Virus record (IMG/VR): IMGVR_UViG_3300011400_000008
Location: 1-43,196 of that record
Length of the DNA: 43,196 nucleotides
Reading direction: 5' to 3' (one strand)
From: a virus
A program made the position numbers and the translations under genes. The notes below the pieces were generated by a model. It searched no databases and was not told the origin of the DNA. It was given only the letters and a program-made list of their open reading frames with translations. How positions within the stretch are numbered: position 1 is the stretch's first letter; every line of letters starts with the position of its first letter. Shown one piece after another: positions 7,668 to 43,116 of this stretch.

Positions 7668-10220
7668 ATGGGAGTGATGCGTCAACGTGTCGCCCGCCTC
7701 GCGGAGGCGGTCCGGGGCATCTGGTCGGGCCCGCTGATGTCGAGCTCGCCGGAGCTTGCGCGGCTCTGGGGCGCGCCGGCGACGAGTACCGGCATGGGCG
7801 TGAACGAAACCACGGCCCTCACGTACTCGGCGTTCTGGGCCTGCGTCAACGCGATCGCGACCGACTGCGCCTCGCTGCCGCTGATCCTCTACAAACGGGC
7901 GGAAGGCGGCGGCAAATCGCGCTATGTCGCCTCACGGCTCTACCACCTGCTCCATGACGAGCCCAATCCCGAGATGACGTCGATGACGTTTCGGCAGACG
8001 TTGACGGCGCACGCGCTCACGTGGGGCGGCGGCTACGCGGAAATCGAGCGCGACGGCGCGGACCGGCCGCGGGCGCTCTGGCCCCTGACGCCGGATCGGG
8101 TGACGCCGGCGCGCACCGCTGGGCAGCAGATCGTCTACCGCATCACGCGGGCGGACGGCGGCTACGACGAGCTGCCGGCGCACAACGTGTTGCACATCCC
8201 GGGGCTCGGGTTCGATGGGCTCGTCGGCTATTCCGTGGTCGCGAAAGCACGCGAGTCGATCGGGCTCGGCCTGGCGACGGAGCGCTTCGGCGGGACGTTC
8301 TTCGGCAACGGCTCGACCTTCGGCGGCGTGATTTCGCTCGGCCCCGGCGAGCAGTTGACGGAGCAGGCCAAGAAGAATTTCCGGGAGATGAACGACGCGA
8401 CCCACAACGGCGTCGACCGCGCGCACAAGTTCCTCCTGCTGGCGAACCAGGCCAAGTACGAACGGCTCGGGATTCCGCCCGAGGACGCGCAGTTCCTCGA
8501 GACACGCCTCCACCAGGTCGAGGAAATGTGCCGGTGGTTCCGGATGCCGCCGCACAAGATTCAGCACCTGCTGCGCGCGACCAATAACAACATCGAGCAC
8601 CAGGGCATCGAGTACTACAGCGATACGCTGCGCGCCTGGCTCGTGCGCTGGGAGCAGGAGATCAACCGGAAGTTGATTCCCTCGCTCGAGCGGCGCCAGC
8701 AGTTTACCGAGCACCTGATCGAAGGCGTGCAGCGCGGGGATCTCGCGAGTCGGTACGCCGCCTATGCCGTGGGGCGGCAGTGGGGCTGGCTGTCGGTCGA
8801 CGACATTCGCGAGCGCGAGAACATGAACCCGTTGGCGGATGGCCAGGGGACGACCTACCTCGTGCCGCTGAACATGGTGCCCGCGGATCGGCTGAACGAC
8901 GTGATCGACAAGCAAGTCGAACCGACGCCGGCGCCGATCGCCCCCGTCGTGCCGGCGGCCGACGACGACCCCACCGGCCGGGCCCTCGAGGCGATTCAGG
9001 CGGCCCTCGTCGCCGCGGAAGCGCGCGTGCAGAGCCATCTGGCGGCCGCGGCCGCGGCCGACGCCCGGGCGCTGACCTTGGAAGGAACCGCCGAGCAGCA
9101 CGAGACGGACGCCACGATCCAGCGCGATGCCGCGGCGGCCGCGCAACAGGAGGTGTCGAGGCTCCAGGCGCTCAATCTGGAGGCCCAGGAGCGTTCAATT
9201 CGTGAACAGGCCGACCGGGACGGGCTGAAAGCGGCACTCGAAGCCCAGGCGGCGAGCCACCTCGAGGCGCTCGCGATCGTGACCCAGGCGGTCACGGCGG
9301 CGGACGCGGAGGTCCTCCGGATACAGGGGGATGTGGCGATTTCGCAACAGGCGGTCCTCGACGCGCAGGCGCGGGCCGCCGTGCTCGAACAAGAGGCCGC
9401 GGCCGAGCGGGCAAGTGCCGGCGTGGCCCTCGAGGGGACGAGCGCGGCGCAGCAGGAACGGGACCGGGTCCAGGCGGAGCTCGGGCCCGCCCGCGAGGCC
9501 CAGCGCCTGGCGGAGCTGGCGCTCGAGCAGGCGACCAGCCAGCTCACCGACGCGGAGGGGCGCGCCGCGGTGGAACGGGCCGCGCTCGAGCACCAGGTGG
9601 CCGACGAACGAGCGAGCGCCGCCGCCGCGCTCTCGACCGCCGATCAAGTCCGGTTCCACCTCACCGCCGCGGTCGAGACGCACCAGGCGGCCCTCGTCGA
9701 GGCGCAGCTCGCGCTCGCCAGCAGCGAGGCGCGCGAGAAGAAAGACCACGAGTGGCGAGAGACCTTGAGTGAAACGGCCGAACTCCTTACCACGCACCTC
9801 GAGACGCATAAAAAGCGTCTTGCTGACGTCAGCGTCGCCGTCCGGGCCGCCGTCGTGGATCGCCTGGCGTGGATGGTCGAGCACGAATCGGACCGCGCCC
9901 GCGCGAAGCAGGGCTCGCCCGAGAAGCTCCGCAAGTGGGTCGACGACTTCTACACGGGCGACTTCAGCGATCGCTGCCGCACGATTCTGCGGCCCAGCGT
10001 GAAAGCGTGGGTCGTCTGCATGAACCATCCGGAACCGGTCGAGCACCTGCTCGATCTCTTGATTGCCCAGCACGTGGAGCAGTCGGTGCGGCAGCTGCGC
10101 GCGGTGGCGAACGAGCACGACGTCGAGACGCTGCCGGCGGCGCTCGAGAAAGTCCTGCGGCGGTGGGAAGCCAGTCGCGCGGACACCTTGGCGGATCGGA
10201 TTCTGAAAGAGGCGGCGTAA
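7668..10220 (+). CDS. HK97-type portal protein with long coiled-coil insertion
   Basis: An 850-residue protein from the ATG at 7668, 4 nt after the terL stop. Residues 1-415 form a normal HK97-family portal: YSAFWACVNAIATDCASLPLILYK, then HQGIEYYSDTLRAWLVRWEQEINRKL and DDIRERENMNPLADG (given here as short family landmarks). Residues about 430-700 are an almost unbroken Ala/Glu/Gln/Arg heptad-like coiled coil with no family counterpart that I know. Residues about 705-850 resume a helical module (RKWVDDFY, RTILRPSV) seen at the end of many portals. Usual family length is 400-500 residues. The portal is the DNA channel at the capsid vertex. Confidence 0.92.
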   Translation: MGVMRQRVARLAEAVRGIWSGPLMSSSPELARLWGAPATSTGMGVNETTALTYSAFWACVNAIATDCASLPLILYKRAEGGGKSRYVASRLYHLLHDEPNPEMTSMTFRQTLTAHALTWGGGYAEIERDGADRPRALWPLTPDRVTPARTAGQQIVYRITRADGGYDELPAHNVLHIPGLGFDGLVGYSVVAKARESIGLGLATERFGGTFFGNGSTFGGVISLGPGEQLTEQAKKNFREMNDATHNGVDRAHKFLLLANQAKYERLGIPPEDAQFLETRLHQVEEMCRWFRMPPHKIQHLLRATNNNIEHQGIEYYSDTLRAWLVRWEQEINRKLIPSLERRQQFTEHLIEGVQRGDLASRYAAYAVGRQWGWLSVDDIRERENMNPLADGQGTTYLVPLNMVPADRLNDVIDKQVEPTPAPIAPVVPAADDDPTGRALEAIQAALVAAEARVQSHLAAAAAADARALTLEGTAEQHETDATIQRDAAAAAQQEVSRLQALNLEAQERSIREQADRDGLKAALEAQAASHLEALAIVTQAVTAADAEVLRIQGDVAISQQAVLDAQARAAVLEQEAAAERASAGVALEGTSAAQQERDRVQAELGPAREAQRLAELALEQATSQLTDAEGRAAVERAALEHQVADERASAAAALSTADQVRFHLTAAVETHQAALVEAQLALASSEAREKKDHEWRETLSETAELLTTHLETHKKRLADVSVAVRAAVVDRLAWMVEHESDRARAKQGSPEKLRKWVDDFYTGDFSDRCRTILRPSVKAWVVCMNHPEPVEHLLDLLIAQHVEQSVRQLRAVANEHDVETLPAALEKVLRRWEASRADTLADRILKEAA

Positions 10221-30031: not shown

Positions 30032-31293
30032 GACTCGTCGCCCGATGCCTGGGCCCATCGCGGCAGCGGCGTACCGGTCTCTTCGCAGTATCGCTGGATG
30101 CGGGACATCGCGGCGACAGAGGCGCGTTGGAGTTGTAGAGGGGTCGCGCGCTCGATATCACGAATACCGGTCCGCCCTTTAATATCCGCCATGAAATGCG
30201 CGATCGGCTGGCCTCCACTCTTCGCGGGAAACTGTGCCCACCATTTCTGGGCTTGTCCCAACCGCTTGCGATGGACGTCGTGATGTTCACGTTCCGTCAG
30301 CGGTCGGCTCACCGGTTCCGGTCGTTCCGTCACGCCACTCAGCGCTCCGCCAAGAATGGGCACGTCGAATGGCCGGGCCTGATTGACGATGTCGAGCACC
30401 TGAGCGAAGCGTGGCCACCACGATCCCGGCAATTCCGCTTGACGAAGCGCGGGCGTCAGGAGTTCTTCGAGCCCCGGATCCACGTCGAACGTTCCGCCCG
30501 TGCTGACGGCCGACACGACTTCGAGCCCTGGATCGCGCACCGCGATGAGATCCTTATCGCTCCACGGCGGCCCTGGTGGTCCGGGCGGCCCTGGTGGTCC
30601 GGGCGGCCCTGGCGGTCCAGGCGGCCCTGGCGACGGGGCTTCGATGTTATGGACCATGGGCGCGAGAATGTCCCGAAATCTGTCCACTAACTCTTGGATG
30701 TCGGGCAAGATGATGGCCGTCGTCAGTAGGTGCCCGACCTTGGTCCGTTCCCAAGTTGCGACCCGCTGGCCGCGGGCCACGACTTGGCGGATGTACTGGA
30801 TGGTCTTCACGTTCGTGGCGTAGGTAATGACCGCAATCTCTGGGCAATCGTAGCCCTCGCCGGCCATGTTGACGGTGCACAGCACGCCGACGCGTGGATT
30901 CCGTCGAAAGTTCTCAAGGCGGCGATACGCGTCTGGGCCGTCGGCTGACACGACGCATTCGGCCAGTCGATACAGGCCTCGCGCCGCCATTTGTCGGTCG
31001 ACCTCCTCTGCGAACTTGCGCGCCATCTCTGAACGATGGGCGACAATCAACGCTTTGACCGGTGCGTGCTTGCTGTCTTGATGGCGGAGTTGAAGTTGGT
31101 TGAGTGTGACCTCGACCAACTTCGCGACCCACTCCTGGTGTTGATTCAGACGAGCCAACACGACTCGCGACACCGCCTCATCGTCCAGATCAGCAATCGC
31201 ACTCTCGGTGACTTCTGACCTAGTCAGGTCAACACTCGTGACGTTGGCGCCGACACGAAAGAGATCGGGGGCGCGCAGGAGGCCTTCGCGCAC
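30028..31293 (-). CDS. SF2 helicase C-terminal half (frameshifted from 31224-32159), with collagen-like linker
   Basis: A 421-residue reading frame holding helicase motifs IV-VI: VKALIVAHRSEMARKFAEEV, VGVLCTVNMAGEGYDCPEIAVI (motif V) and YIRQVVARGQR (motif VI). Upstream of its first Met the frame stays open and encodes EPRIEAVADYEIQPERLVREG, the expected continuation of the N-terminal half. The two ORFs are therefore one gene broken by a 1-base deletion around 31345-31375, or by a sequencing error. A run of Gly-Pro-Pro triplets (30566-30630) links the helicase to a unique C-terminal domain of about 200 residues with WWPRFAQVLDIV and KWWAQFPAKSGG. Confidence 0.75.
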   Translation of the reverse strand: MREGLLRAPDLFRVGANVTSVDLTRSEVTESAIADLDDEAVSRVVLARLNQHQEWVAKLVEVTLNQLQLRHQDSKHAPVKALIVAHRSEMARKFAEEVDRQMAARGLYRLAECVVSADGPDAYRRLENFRRNPRVGVLCTVNMAGEGYDCPEIAVITYATNVKTIQYIRQVVARGQRVATWERTKVGHLLTTAIILPDIQELVDRFRDILAPMVHNIEAPSPGPPGPPGPPGPPGPPGPPGPPWSDKDLIAVRDPGLEVVSAVSTGGTFDVDPGLEELLTPALRQAELPGSWWPRFAQVLDIVNQARPFDVPILGGALSGVTERPEPVSRPLTEREHHDVHRKRLGQAQKWWAQFPAKSGGQPIAHFMADIKGRTGIRDIERATPLQLQRASVAAMSRIQRYCEETGTPLPRWAQASGDES

Positions 31294-40244: not shown

Positions 40245-41252
40245 ATGAGTCGCCAGGTGACCGACATCGAGCGGCGGATCGCATGGACGCGCTTCGATCG
40301 GGCGACCGACAAAACAGTGATGCTGGCGATGGCGCGGTGGTTCTGTTGGCGCGGCGACGGCCGGCAGGTCCGGTTCACGGTCACGGAGTTAGCCCGGAAG
40401 GCCGGAGTGCCGAAGCGATCCACGGAACGCGCGCTCGAGCGCCTCGAGGCGGACTGGTGGATCGAGATCACGGCGCGCACGCATCGTCGGCCGACGACGT
40501 ATCGGATCGTCCTCGAGCGCCTCGCGACGCGCGATCCGGAGGAGCCGACGTTGACCGCCACAGTGGCGGACAGCGCGACCTGTTGTCCGCCAGAGTGGCG
40601 GACAAACGACGTGGTTGACCGCCAGAGTGGCGGACAAGACCCTGAGTGGCGGACAAGAAATGGGCCTGATTTTGAAAAAGTGGCGGACCAAAGATCAGAA
40701 GAAGAAGTACGTACCGAAAGATCAATTCGTACTCCTTCTTCTTCTGAAGAGGTCCGCCACAGTGGCGGTCAACGTGGCGGTCGACCGGAGCATCCCGACG
40801 TGCCCGCGTTTCTCGCGTGGGCGATCGCCACGTATCCGCAGCATGCGTCCGGGGCCCACCTGGTGCTCGACCGCGATCGCGATGGCCACCTCGTCTCTGG
40901 CTTACTCGAGCACTATCCGGTCGACCGCCTCCAGGCGATGACGGTGACGTGCTGGACGATCGAGGCGGATCGCGATCCGTTGAGTCATGCGTCGTGGATC
41001 GCGCGCAGTGATCGGAGTCTGCGGGTGCTCCGGCATAAAGCCGCCTTCCTCGAGCGCGTGGTGGTCGGGGCGCAGCAGTTGACGCTCGGGCCGATGACGG
41101 AACACTTCACCGCCAGCGAACTCGCGGCCGCGCGCCTCGTGCGCACTAACGTCTACAACGGCTGCCCGCATGAACCGCGCTGTGCAGGCCCGGATAGCTA
41201 CGCCTCGTGTGTGCGCGAGATCGCCTGGCTGCAGAAATACGGGACAGGATGA
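40245..41252 (+). CDS. Replication initiator-like protein with winged-helix domain
   Basis: A 335-residue protein. Residues 1-90 form a winged helix (DKTVMLAMARWFCWRGDGR, FTVTELARKAGVPKRSTERALERLEADWWIEI), as in phage O/DnaD-like initiators. Residues about 100-185 are a low-complexity linker encoded by the iterons described separately, repeating EWRT and SGGQ. The C-terminal domain has FLAWAIATYPQHASG and ends in a Cys cluster (CPHEPRCAGPDSYASC). It probably binds its own gene region and recruits the host helicase. Array 1 begins right at its stop. Confidence 0.72.
   Translation: MSRQVTDIERRIAWTRFDRATDKTVMLAMARWFCWRGDGRQVRFTVTELARKAGVPKRSTERALERLEADWWIEITARTHRRPTTYRIVLERLATRDPEEPTLTATVADSATCCPPEWRTNDVVDRQSGGQDPEWRTRNGPDFEKVADQRSEEEVRTERSIRTPSSSEEVRHSGGQRGGRPEHPDVPAFLAWAIATYPQHASGAHLVLDRDRDGHLVSGLLEHYPVDRLQAMTVTCWTIEADRDPLSHASWIARSDRSLRVLRHKAAFLERVVVGAQQLTLGPMTEHFTASELAAARLVRTNVYNGCPHEPRCAGPDSYASCVREIAWLQKYGTG
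40551..40784. other. Iteron-type replication origin inside the initiator gene
   Basis: Three 23-bp palindromic units start at 40551, 40583 and 40615, exactly 32 bp apart. Each has arms of the type TTGTCCGCCA and TGGCGGACAA around a 3-bp centre (the first and third have one or two mismatches). Direct half-sites TGGCGGACAA (40647) and TGGCGGACCA (40681) follow. After an AT-richer purine stretch with an imperfect inverted repeat (CAGAAGAAGAA near 40696; TTCTTCTTCTG near 40736) come another palindrome (40751-40772) and a half-site (40775). This resembles lambda-like origins within gene O. Confidence 0.75.
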
Positions 41253-41585
41253 ATGAGCCATCAATCGTGAGCGCACCATCTCTGAAGAGCGAGCCAGTGT
41301 GTGTGAGCGCACCAAAGAACGTGAGCGAGCCAGGGCGGCAAGAGCGCAACAGGGTGAACGAGCGAGCCACGCAGATCGAGAGCACCATTCGATAGGAGCG
41401 AGCCATGAGGAAAGAGCGCACCAATCTCAGGGAGCGAGCCAACGACTCAGAGGGCACCACGTGAATCGAGCGAGCCATGTTTGCGGAGCGCACCAAATCG
41501 ACAGAGCGAGCCAGCATGCGTGAGCGCACCAATGGGACAGAGCGAGCCAATGAACACGAGCGCACCAGTCGGAACGAGCGAACCC
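41253..41585 (+). repeat. Repeat-spacer array 1 (18-bp units, alternating cores)
   Basis: Nineteen 8-bp cores alternate strictly between type A (GCGAGCCA, 10 copies) and type B (GCGCACCA, 9 copies, with variants GAGCACCA, GGGCACCA, GCGCAACA). Between cores lie 8 variable bases followed by GA, so the unit is 18 bp and the composite 36 bp. One spacer has 9 variable bases. All 18 spacers differ. The first core (ATGAGCCA) abuts the initiator stop codon; the last (GCGAACCC) ends one base before the ATG at 41587. Confidence 0.95.
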
Positions 41586-41586
41586 T

Positions 41587-42432
41587 ATGCCTGACACCCT
41601 AACTCCGCCTGACGACTACCGCGGCCTCGAAGCGGTGACGCGCCTTTCGCGCGATCTGAAAAAGGCCGCGCAGACCCTGTCCCCGGACGAGGCCCGCTAC
41701 CTGGTCGACGCGTACTACCAGATGCAGGGCGATCGGATCCGCTCCATGAACCAGGTCCGTGCGCTGACGGAGAGCGAGGAACCGCACCAGACCCTCACCT
41801 GGCTGGCCGACAACGCCGGCGTCCTCGAACGTTCGATCGCCGGGGCCCTCGACGCCTATAGCAAGGCCTCCGTCGTCGGCCAGTGGGCGCGCTCGATCTG
41901 CGGCATCGGGCCGGTGATCGCGGCGGGCCTCCTCGCGCACATCGACATCACGAAGGCGCCGACGGCCGGGCACATCTGGCGCTTTGCCGGGCTCGATCCC
42001 ACGGTCAGTTGGGAGAAGGGGAAGAAGCGGCCGTGGAACGCGTCACTGAAAACCCTGTGCTGGAAGATCGGCGAATCGTTCGTCAAGGTGTCGACCAACG
42101 ACGACGACATCTACGGCCATCTCTACGTCGGGCGCAAAGCCTTCGAGCAGCAGCGCAATGACCGGGGCGACCTCGCCGACCAGGCCGCCGCGAAGCTCGT
42201 GAAGTTCAAGATCGGCAAAGGCACGGACGCGCGCAAGGCGTACGAGGCGGGGAAGTTGCCGCCGGCGCACGTCCACGCGCGGGCGAAACGGTGGGCGGTG
42301 AAACTCTTCCTCGCACATTACCAGGCGGTCGCCTATCGCGATCATTTCGGAACCGAGGCGCCGAAGCCGTACATCCTGACGCGGGAAGGTGGGCACGCGC
42401 ACGAGATCGCGGTGCCGCATTGGCCGTTCTAG
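41587..42432 (+). CDS. IS110-type Transposase_20 domain protein lacking the DEDD domain
   Basis: A 281-residue protein. Residues about 100-165 (ICGIGPVIAAGLLAHIDI, HIWRFAGLDPTVSWEKGKKRPWNASLKTLCWKIGESF in pieces) match the Transposase_20/IS116-IS110-IS902 C-terminal domain, with a helix-hairpin-helix and a serine at the position where IS110 carries its catalytic Ser. The N-terminal 100 residues are helical and lack the FVGIDVS start of the DEDD domain. The C-terminus (HARAKRWAVKLFLAHYQAVAYRDHFG) is basic. Similar stand-alone proteins occur in other phages without known role. Both flanks are filled by repeat arrays, suggesting it acts on or with them. Confidence 0.82.
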   Translation: MPDTLTPPDDYRGLEAVTRLSRDLKKAAQTLSPDEARYLVDAYYQMQGDRIRSMNQVRALTESEEPHQTLTWLADNAGVLERSIAGALDAYSKASVVGQWARSICGIGPVIAAGLLAHIDITKAPTAGHIWRFAGLDPTVSWEKGKKRPWNASLKTLCWKIGESFVKVSTNDDDIYGHLYVGRKAFEQQRNDRGDLADQAAAKLVKFKIGKGTDARKAYEAGKLPPAHVHARAKRWAVKLFLAHYQAVAYRDHFGTEAPKPYILTREGGHAHEIAVPHWPF

Positions 42433-42904
42433 CCATGCTCGTCGAGCGCACCAACAAGCCGGAGCGAGCCATGTATCAAGAGAGCACCAAGCTTGTCGAG
42501 CGAGCCAGGCACAACGAGGGCGCCATATCACGTGAGCGAGCCAATCACGCTGAGCGCACCAAAAGGCGGGAGCGAGCCATAGATGTAGAGAGCACCCAGA
42601 AGACAGAGCGAGCCGTTGACAGAGAGCGCACCAAGTCGAGAGAGCGAGCCACTTTGCGAGAGAGCACCAGAGAAAGGGAGCGAGCCATAACGGCTGAGGG
42701 CACCCAAGAAGTTGAGCGAGCCAGGCAACGAGAGCGCACCAAGGGTTTAGAGCGAGCCATAGGGGTAGAGCGCACCAGCTGACCCGAGCGAGCCAGAAAG
42801 TCGGAGGGCACCAGCGTTCAAGAGCGAGCCAGCAGCAGTGAGTCGCACCATAGGCGTTGAGCGAGCCATTAACCTAGAGAGCACCACGAAAGCAGAGCGA
42901 GCGA
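42428..42904 (+). repeat. Repeat-spacer array 2 (18-bp units, alternating cores)
   Basis: Twenty-seven cores continue the A/B alternation (14 A, 13 B) with 26 spacers of exactly 8 variable bases plus GA. The only length anomaly is one B core with an inserted T (GTCGCACCA near 42842). B cores vary at their first three bases (GCG, GAG, GGG) while A cores are nearly constant. The first core overlaps the stop codon of the IS110-like gene (TCTAGCCA) and the last (GCGAGCGA) supplies the A of the next ATG. No spacer repeats one in array 1. Confidence 0.95.
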
Positions 42905-43116
42905 TGACCAGCATCAACGAGAAGCTGGGCTTCAAGCGCCCAGGGAAACGCGCGTTCATGAAGAACCTCCCAGGGGACCGCGCGCTGCGCAACCGCGTCA
43001 CCTCGGCGAAGTGTCCGGCCTGTGATCGCACCGGCGCGCATCTCTCGCGCCTCCGCGGGCAGGAAGGCTGGCTGACCTGTGGCTGGTGTAACCACACGTG
43101 GGAGCTGCCGGCGTGA
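42904..43116 (+). CDS. Zinc-ribbon protein following array 2
   Basis: A 70-residue protein with two knuckles, CPACDRTG and CGWCNHTW, a zinc ribbon in the C-terminal half, after a basic helical start (KLGFKRPGKRAFMKN). The ATG lies inside the last array core. A GTG 22 codons upstream would add array-encoded residues (ERA, EST repeats) and is rejected. It may bind nucleic acid. Stop overlaps the next GTG. Confidence 0.7.
   Translation: MTSINEKLGFKRPGKRAFMKNLPGDRALRNRVTSAKCPACDRTGAHLSRLRGQEGWLTCGWCNHTWELPA

What the first reader, a model, noticed from the sequence alone, without database searches (positions are those of the whole stretch)
41253..42904. Two arrays of alternating short repeats with unique 8-bp spacers
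Seen directly: 46 copies of an 8-bp core, alternating GCGAGCCA and GCGCACCA without exception, separated by 8 variable bases plus GA. The period is 18 bp (36 bp for the A/B pair). All 44 spacers differ, and only two length irregularities exist. The repeats are far too short for CRISPR and are not palindromic, iterons would not have half the unit randomised, and neither a coding nor a simple satellite explanation accounts for strict alternation with unique spacers. The fixed 8-bp spacer length suggests a measured insertion or recognition process. I know of no described system with this layout. A guide-like array, a hypervariable recombination target or a repeated protein-binding RNA are possibilities.
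Basis: seen in the sequence. Interest (0 to 1): 0.96.

Follow-up and report, generated by a model that had tools for sequence, protein, structure and literature searches.

The report
Phage TIGR-Tas guide-RNA array system
A bacterial virus carries two rows of short paired "address tags" around a gene for an RNA-guided DNA-binding protein: this is a new member of the TIGR-Tas family described in 2025, with new clues about how its tags change and what they may aim at.

Summary
The repeats are real. Two arrays (41255-41585 and 42433-42904) of alternating 10-bp edge (GAGCGAGCCA) and loop (GAGCGCACCA) repeats, with 44 distinct 8-nt spacers (two of them 9 nt), fill the gaps on both sides of a 281-aa gene (41587-42432). 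That protein scores 208.5 bits against NCBIfam "TIGR_Tas_endo" (cut-off 100). Its model's best PDB matches are TasH and TasR, and it has no nuclease domain.

New here, from 96 related arrays. Edge repeats covary exactly at the two pairs seen in the TasR structure. Whole spacer pairs are shared between phages at different array positions, and turnover is internal, not at one end. Two window pairs recur in other phages with A and B exchanged (16/16 and 15/16; none at that level in permutations), which is the same double-stranded target read from the other strand. Some variants differ as synonymous codons would. No target was proven: own genome, other TIGR phages and host relatives gave only chance-level matches. 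Candidates are a capsid gene and a terminase gene of other phages.

The parts
41255..41585 (+). TIGR array 1: 5'-truncated edge (GAGCCA, 41255-41260), 9 units of edge/spacer A/loop/spacer B, last degenerate edge GAGCGAACCC (41576-41585). Starts 2 nt after the stop codon of the upstream gene and ends 1 nt before the tasA start codon
41587..42432 (+). tasA: 281-aa solo Nop-domain TIGR-associated protein, no RuvC, HNH or DEDD domain
   Evidence: NCBIfam NF052498 208.5 bits, cut-off 100; Pfam Transposase_20; PDB TasR/TasH by sequence and by fold
42433..42904 (+). TIGR array 2: 5'-truncated edge CCA (42433-42435), 13 units, 3'-truncated edge GAGCGAGCG ending at the next start codon
42606..42641 (+). 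unit TTGACAGA/AGTCGAGA: recurs 16/16 with A and B exchanged in L058 (TasA about 59% identical)
42786..42821 (+). unit GAAAGTCG/GCGTTCAA: identical pair in L002 and L003, in a different array position (in L003 in the upstream array)
42822..42858 (+). unit GCAGCAGT(G)/TAGGCGTT: exchanged as TAGGCGTT/GCAGCAGC in L003 (15/16)
40245..41252 (+). upstream gene, 335 aa, replication-initiation O-like with winged-helix signals; probable operon neighbour
42904..43116 (+). downstream 70-aa zinc-ribbon-like protein; its start codon abuts the last edge repeat
   Evidence: weak

Best explanation
This is a TIGR-TasA system of a tailed phage. Both arrays lie on the coding strand and fill the gaps between genes, so they are probably transcribed with tasA (inferred). 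The transcript would be cut in the middle of each edge repeat into about 22 tigRNAs of 36 nt (5'-GAGCCA, spacer A, loop, spacer B, GAGC-3'). A TasA dimer holds the edge and the loop by their box C (CCA) and box D ends. Spacer A pairs with one strand and spacer B with the other strand of one short DNA site, so the site reads A, 0-2 bp, reverse complement of B. TasA has no nuclease, so it would bind and bend its target and block transcription or replication there, most likely in competing phages or other mobile elements. Shown here: array anatomy, protein family, fold, edge-pair covariation, spacer-pair sharing and swapping. From the published system: processing, dual-strand pairing. Inferred: transcription here, blocking without cutting, the class of target.
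For: Family and fold: NCBIfam TIGR_Tas_endo 208.5 bits, cut-off 100; AlphaFold model mean pLDDT 85, best PDB matches TasH (E 4e-8) and TasR (E 1e-6), IS110-family transposases weaker; phmmer to TasR 9mty E 3e-16. Layout matches the published one: alternating 8-12-nt repeats, 5' and 3' truncated edges, array up- and/or downstream of the gene (PMC12045711). RNA: over 96 loci, edge positions 3-8 are G-C 66, A-T 20, T-A 5, G-T 4, other 1; positions 4-7 are C-G 76, T-A 18, T-G 1, other 1; loops keep only the 3-8 pair, as in the TasR structure. Dual-strand guide logic: two window pairs occur A/B-exchanged in other phages at 16/16 and 15/16, none at 15 or more in four within-locus permutations. Not self-targeting: best own-genome matches equal permuted pairs (mean 12.86 against 12.81).
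Against: No transcription or processing data exist for this locus. No sigma-70-like promoter and no + strand terminator was found beside the arrays, whereas published arrays usually end in a terminator. No natural target is proven. No enrichment of matches was found in other TIGR phages, and the few host-relative genomes tested with single units gave nothing above chance.
Confidence: 0.93

Rival explanations
1. Same system, but the arrays guide TasA to host chromosomal genes to reprogram the host, rather than to competing phages.
For: TasA lacks a nuclease, so host targeting would not be lethal. TIGR-TasA prophages exist in isolate genomes such as Halomonas NO4 and Acidobacteriaceae KBS 96. 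Synonymous-like spacer variation fits any protein-coding target.
Against: Single units searched in three host genomes, 90 Halomonas-genus genomes and 150 genomes of the Propionivibrio order gave 0, 0 and 1 match. The one match is what chance predicts. Only a few units were tested.
Confidence: 0.25
2. The A/B exchange between phages is a by-product of recombination (tandem duplication of a unit followed by a half-unit register shift), not of a common target.
For: Edge and loop differ by only 2 of 10 bases here, and duplicated units exist within arrays (same-within counts).
Against: A simple half-unit shift pairs B with the NEXT A, not with its own A; two events plus edge/loop conversion are needed. 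One exchanged pair is between phages whose TasA are only about 59% identical.
Confidence: 0.25
3. An IS110-type RNA-guided transposon rather than a Tas system.
For: Pfam Transposase_20 and a weak NCBIfam IS110 hit.
Against: No DEDD domain hit, IS110 model 25.5 bits against a cut-off of 140, long dual-repeat guide arrays, and closest structures are TasH/TasR.
Confidence: 0.02

Closest known systems
TIGR-TasA, dual-repeat array type (Faure et al. 2025, PMC12045711)
   Same: Solo Nop-domain protein; alternating edge and loop repeats; 36-bp unit; arrays up- and downstream of the gene; truncated edges at array ends; box C 'CCA'; covarying edge pairs; tailed-phage host
   Different: 8-nt spacers (the paper's usual is 9); 9 + 13 units; no recognisable terminator after the arrays; repeats start GA where TasR repeats start UG
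TIGR-TasH of Salicola phage CGphi29
   Same: 8-nt spacers; the only INPHARED phage whose protein matches (27.8% over 62%)
   Different: TasH carries an HNH nuclease; this protein has none
TIGR-TasR (PDB 9mty)
   Same: Nop domain and coiled coil, sequence E 3e-16
   Different: TasR has an N-terminal RuvC nuclease and 9-nt spacers
IS110/IS1111 transposases (IS621, ISCro4)
   Same: Related RNA-binding domain (weaker fold match)
   Different: No DEDD domain; guide array instead of one bridge RNA

Membership tests
TIGR-Tas | Protein of the Tas/Nop family | tested here: met
   NF052498 208.5 bits against cut-off 100; best folds TasH/TasR
TIGR-Tas | Array of two alternating short repeats with short spacers next to the gene | tested here: met
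TIGR-Tas | Array begins and ends with truncated edge repeats | tested here: met
   GAGCCA at 41255 and CCA at 42433; GAGCGAGCG ends array 2; the last edge of array 1 is degenerate
TIGR-Tas | Edge repeat has box C/D pair plus an extra covarying pair; loop only the box C/D pair | tested here: met
   compared with PMC12045711
TIGR-Tas | Rho-independent terminator after the array | tested here: not met
   none on the + strand. Described as typical, not universal; here the next gene starts at once, so it does not exclude membership
TIGR-Tas | 36-nt tigRNAs bound by Tas | not testable with these tools
   needs RNP pulldown and small-RNA sequencing
TIGR-Tas | Spacer A and B pair with opposite strands of one DNA site | tested here: inconclusive
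   A/B-exchanged natural units fit, but no target is proven
TasA subtype | No nuclease domain | tested here: met
   Pfam and PHROG scans show only Transposase_20-type matches; N-terminal third is helical
IS110 transposase | DEDD catalytic domain | tested here: not met
   no hit; IS110 model far below cut-off
CRISPR-Cas | One repeat of about 25-36 nt, spacers of similar size, cas genes | tested here: not met
   two 10-nt repeats, 8-nt spacers; PADLOC gave no hit for the adjacent protein

The most novel reading that the evidence does not exclude
TIGR arrays are actively rewritten to follow protein-coding genes of rival phages. Each unit takes both spacers from one contiguous DNA site in either orientation (hence natural A/B-exchanged units), units are gained and lost inside the array rather than at a leader end, and variants follow synonymous changes of the target. 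For this phage the targets would include another phage's capsid-gene start or terminase gene.
Probability: 0.3. Interest if true: 0.85.

Novelty: new member of a known kind. Interest (0 to 1): 0.45.

Why it matters
TIGR-Tas is a recently found RNA-guided DNA-targeting family whose natural targets and way of gaining spacers are stated to be unknown (PMC12045711, discussion). About 100 related phage loci assembled here show that spacer pairs move between arrays as pairs, turn over internally, can be A/B-exchanged, and drift partly in a synonymous-codon pattern. If that holds in a larger set, targets can be read from comparative data and the adaptation question becomes testable.

Tried and rejected
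Self-targeting of the phage's own 43 kb: equal to permuted pairs. Targets among other TIGR phages, near the tas gene (1.9 Mb): no enrichment in any order or gap over within-locus permutations, once loci fetched with the same pattern are left out. Exact 16-nt scans of viral contigs with unit 42786: gap 0 gave 21 contigs in unrelated contexts, the opposite order gave 6. Host genomes by single units: nothing above chance. Contig L185, from the same metagenome as L180, carries exactly L180's variant with a 2-bp gap, but no other L180 unit matches it. Further units against the candidate capsid and terminase phages: 3 exact matches at gap 1 against 0.4 expected, not significant over the 10 order/gap classes tested. 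Codon-phase test across both spacers did not agree on one gap length. PADLOC: no hit. Coding, satellite, iteron and CRISPR readings are excluded by the layout and the adjacent Tas gene.

Full report
OBSERVATION. The repeats are present where stated. Parsing with the two 10-mers GAGCGAGCCA (edge) and GAGCGCACCA (loop) gives 9 units before and 13 units after a gene at 41587-42432, each unit being edge(10) + A(8) + loop(10) + B(8) = 36 bp, with 44 distinct spacers. Two spacers are 9 nt long. Loops vary more than edges (11 of 22 and 19 of 24 exact). Array 1 begins two bases after the stop codon of the upstream gene with a truncated edge GAGCCA, and its last, degenerate edge ends one base before the tasA ATG. 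Array 2 begins directly at the tasA stop codon with a truncated edge CCA and ends at the next ATG.

WHAT IT IS. The intervening 281-aa protein passes NCBIfam NF052498 'TIGR-Tas system RNA-guided endonuclease' at 208.5 bits (cut-off 100), while the IS110 model reaches 25.5 of 140. Pfam sees only Transposase_20, the IS110-type RNA-binding region. phmmer and profile searches of the PDB hit TasR 9mty and TasH first. An AlphaFold model (mean pLDDT 85) matches TasH and TasR best and IS621/ISCro4 weaker. There is no HNH, RuvC or DEDD hit, so it is the solo Nop type, TasA. The layout is the one described by Faure et al. 2025 (PMC12045711). The window is a whole 43-kb record of a tailed phage with terminase, portal, major head and tape-measure genes.

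RELATIVES. Scans of viral contigs with three Tas proteins and of bacterial genomes with an alignment gave about 100 distinct related loci; nearly all have a 36-bp dual-repeat array beside the gene. Across 96 loci the edge consensus covaries at positions 3-8 (G-C, A-T, T-A, G-T in 95 of 96) and 4-7 (C-G, T-A, T-G in 95 of 96), whereas loops keep only the 3-8 pair. This is the box C/D pair plus the extra edge pair of the TasR structure, and independent support that the RNA works the same way.

SPACERS. In 1391 units from 96 deduplicated loci, 191 unit pairs from different loci are identical at 16/16, against 4 to 15 after shuffling B within loci. Shared units sit at different array positions, in collinear blocks with losses and gains scattered through the array, without a leader-end polarity. 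Window, L002 and L003, whose TasA proteins are 89-92% identical, share only one exact unit with each other. Two window units occur with A and B exchanged: TTGACAGA/AGTCGAGA (16/16) in L058 and GCAGCAGT/TAGGCGTT (15/16) in L003; four permutations gave none at 15 or more. Under the dual-strand rule an exchanged unit addresses the same DNA site from the other strand, and exchanged tigRNAs were functional in the published assay. I read this as natural support for the rule; a recombination by-product is possible but needs several steps.

TARGET GEOMETRY. Cutting 5' of the nucleotide paired with the fifth base after box C, with 8-nt 3' overhangs and 9-nt spacers, fits only the order A + reverse complement of B (my derivation). 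With 8-nt spacers a gap of up to 2 bp may remain.

VARIATION. Where homologous units differ at two or more places in one spacer, 7 of 12 pairs are compatible with all changes being synonymous in some frame, against 2.1-2.3 +/- 1.4 for shuffled positions. Clear cases are ATAcGTgC / gTACGTtC / ATAaGTtC and ATACCGTT / GTAGCGCT in L170, L171, L173 (differences at positions 1, 4, 7). The pairs are not independent, so this is suggestive only.

CANDIDATE TARGETS, NOT PROVEN. Unit 42786 (GAAAGTCG/GCGTTCAA, also in L002 and L003) matches exactly, with a 1-bp gap, codons near the start of a major-head-protein gene (M-R-S-T-D-F) in 29 viral contigs of one phage group, with homologues 71-100% identical around the site. 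The group is heavily sampled, so this may be one chance event. Unit 42606 matches with a 2-bp gap a terminase large-subunit gene in three related contigs (L207, L208, L211), all 18 bases if the fixed G next to each spacer also pairs. Hit numbers in these scans are what chance would give. Neither site is in the window phage itself.

MECHANISM. Most likely: arrays and tasA are transcribed together, host RNase plus TasA yield 36-nt tigRNAs, and the TasA RNP binds and bends dual-strand sites and blocks them without cutting. Transcription, processing and blocking are inferred from the published family, not shown for this locus.

VERDICT. Already explained in kind: a new member of the TIGR-Tas family, nuclease-free subtype. 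The added value is comparative evidence about spacer turnover and the exchanged units.

Noticed in passing
window 40550-40637: About 2.8 copies of a 32-bp repeat containing CCGCCA-GAGT-GGCGGACAA palindromes inside the replication-initiator-like gene 40245-41252; looks like lambda-O-type origin iterons.
   Followed up: no
L026, L040, L046: Arrays with a 34-bp period: edge GAGCGAGCCA but an 8-nt loop GAACATCA, a shorter-loop TIGR variant.
   Followed up: partly
L020 13174-13691; L080 7538-7783; L072 665-1178; L073 1118-1383: Second 36-bp arrays lying 2-9 kb away from the tas gene; those of L020 and L080 have edge/loop consensus.
   Followed up: partly
L065, L075 tas matches: The tas match contains an in-frame stop codon under table 11: recoded phage, pseudogene or error.
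   Followed up: no
window 30566-30632: 18-bp repeat GGCGGCCCTGGTGGTCCG, collagen-like Gly-X-Y coding repeat.
   Followed up: no
L110 about 9720-9990 (Halomonas sp. NO4): Prophage TIGR array with strongly degenerate edge repeats upstream of a TasA 66% identical to the window's; closest relative with a named isolate host.
   Followed up: partly
L185 469-486: Exact copy, with 2-bp gap, of L180's unit CTACCTTG/ACCCGTAA in another virus contig of the same metagenome, 35 bp upstream of an ORF start.
   Followed up: partly
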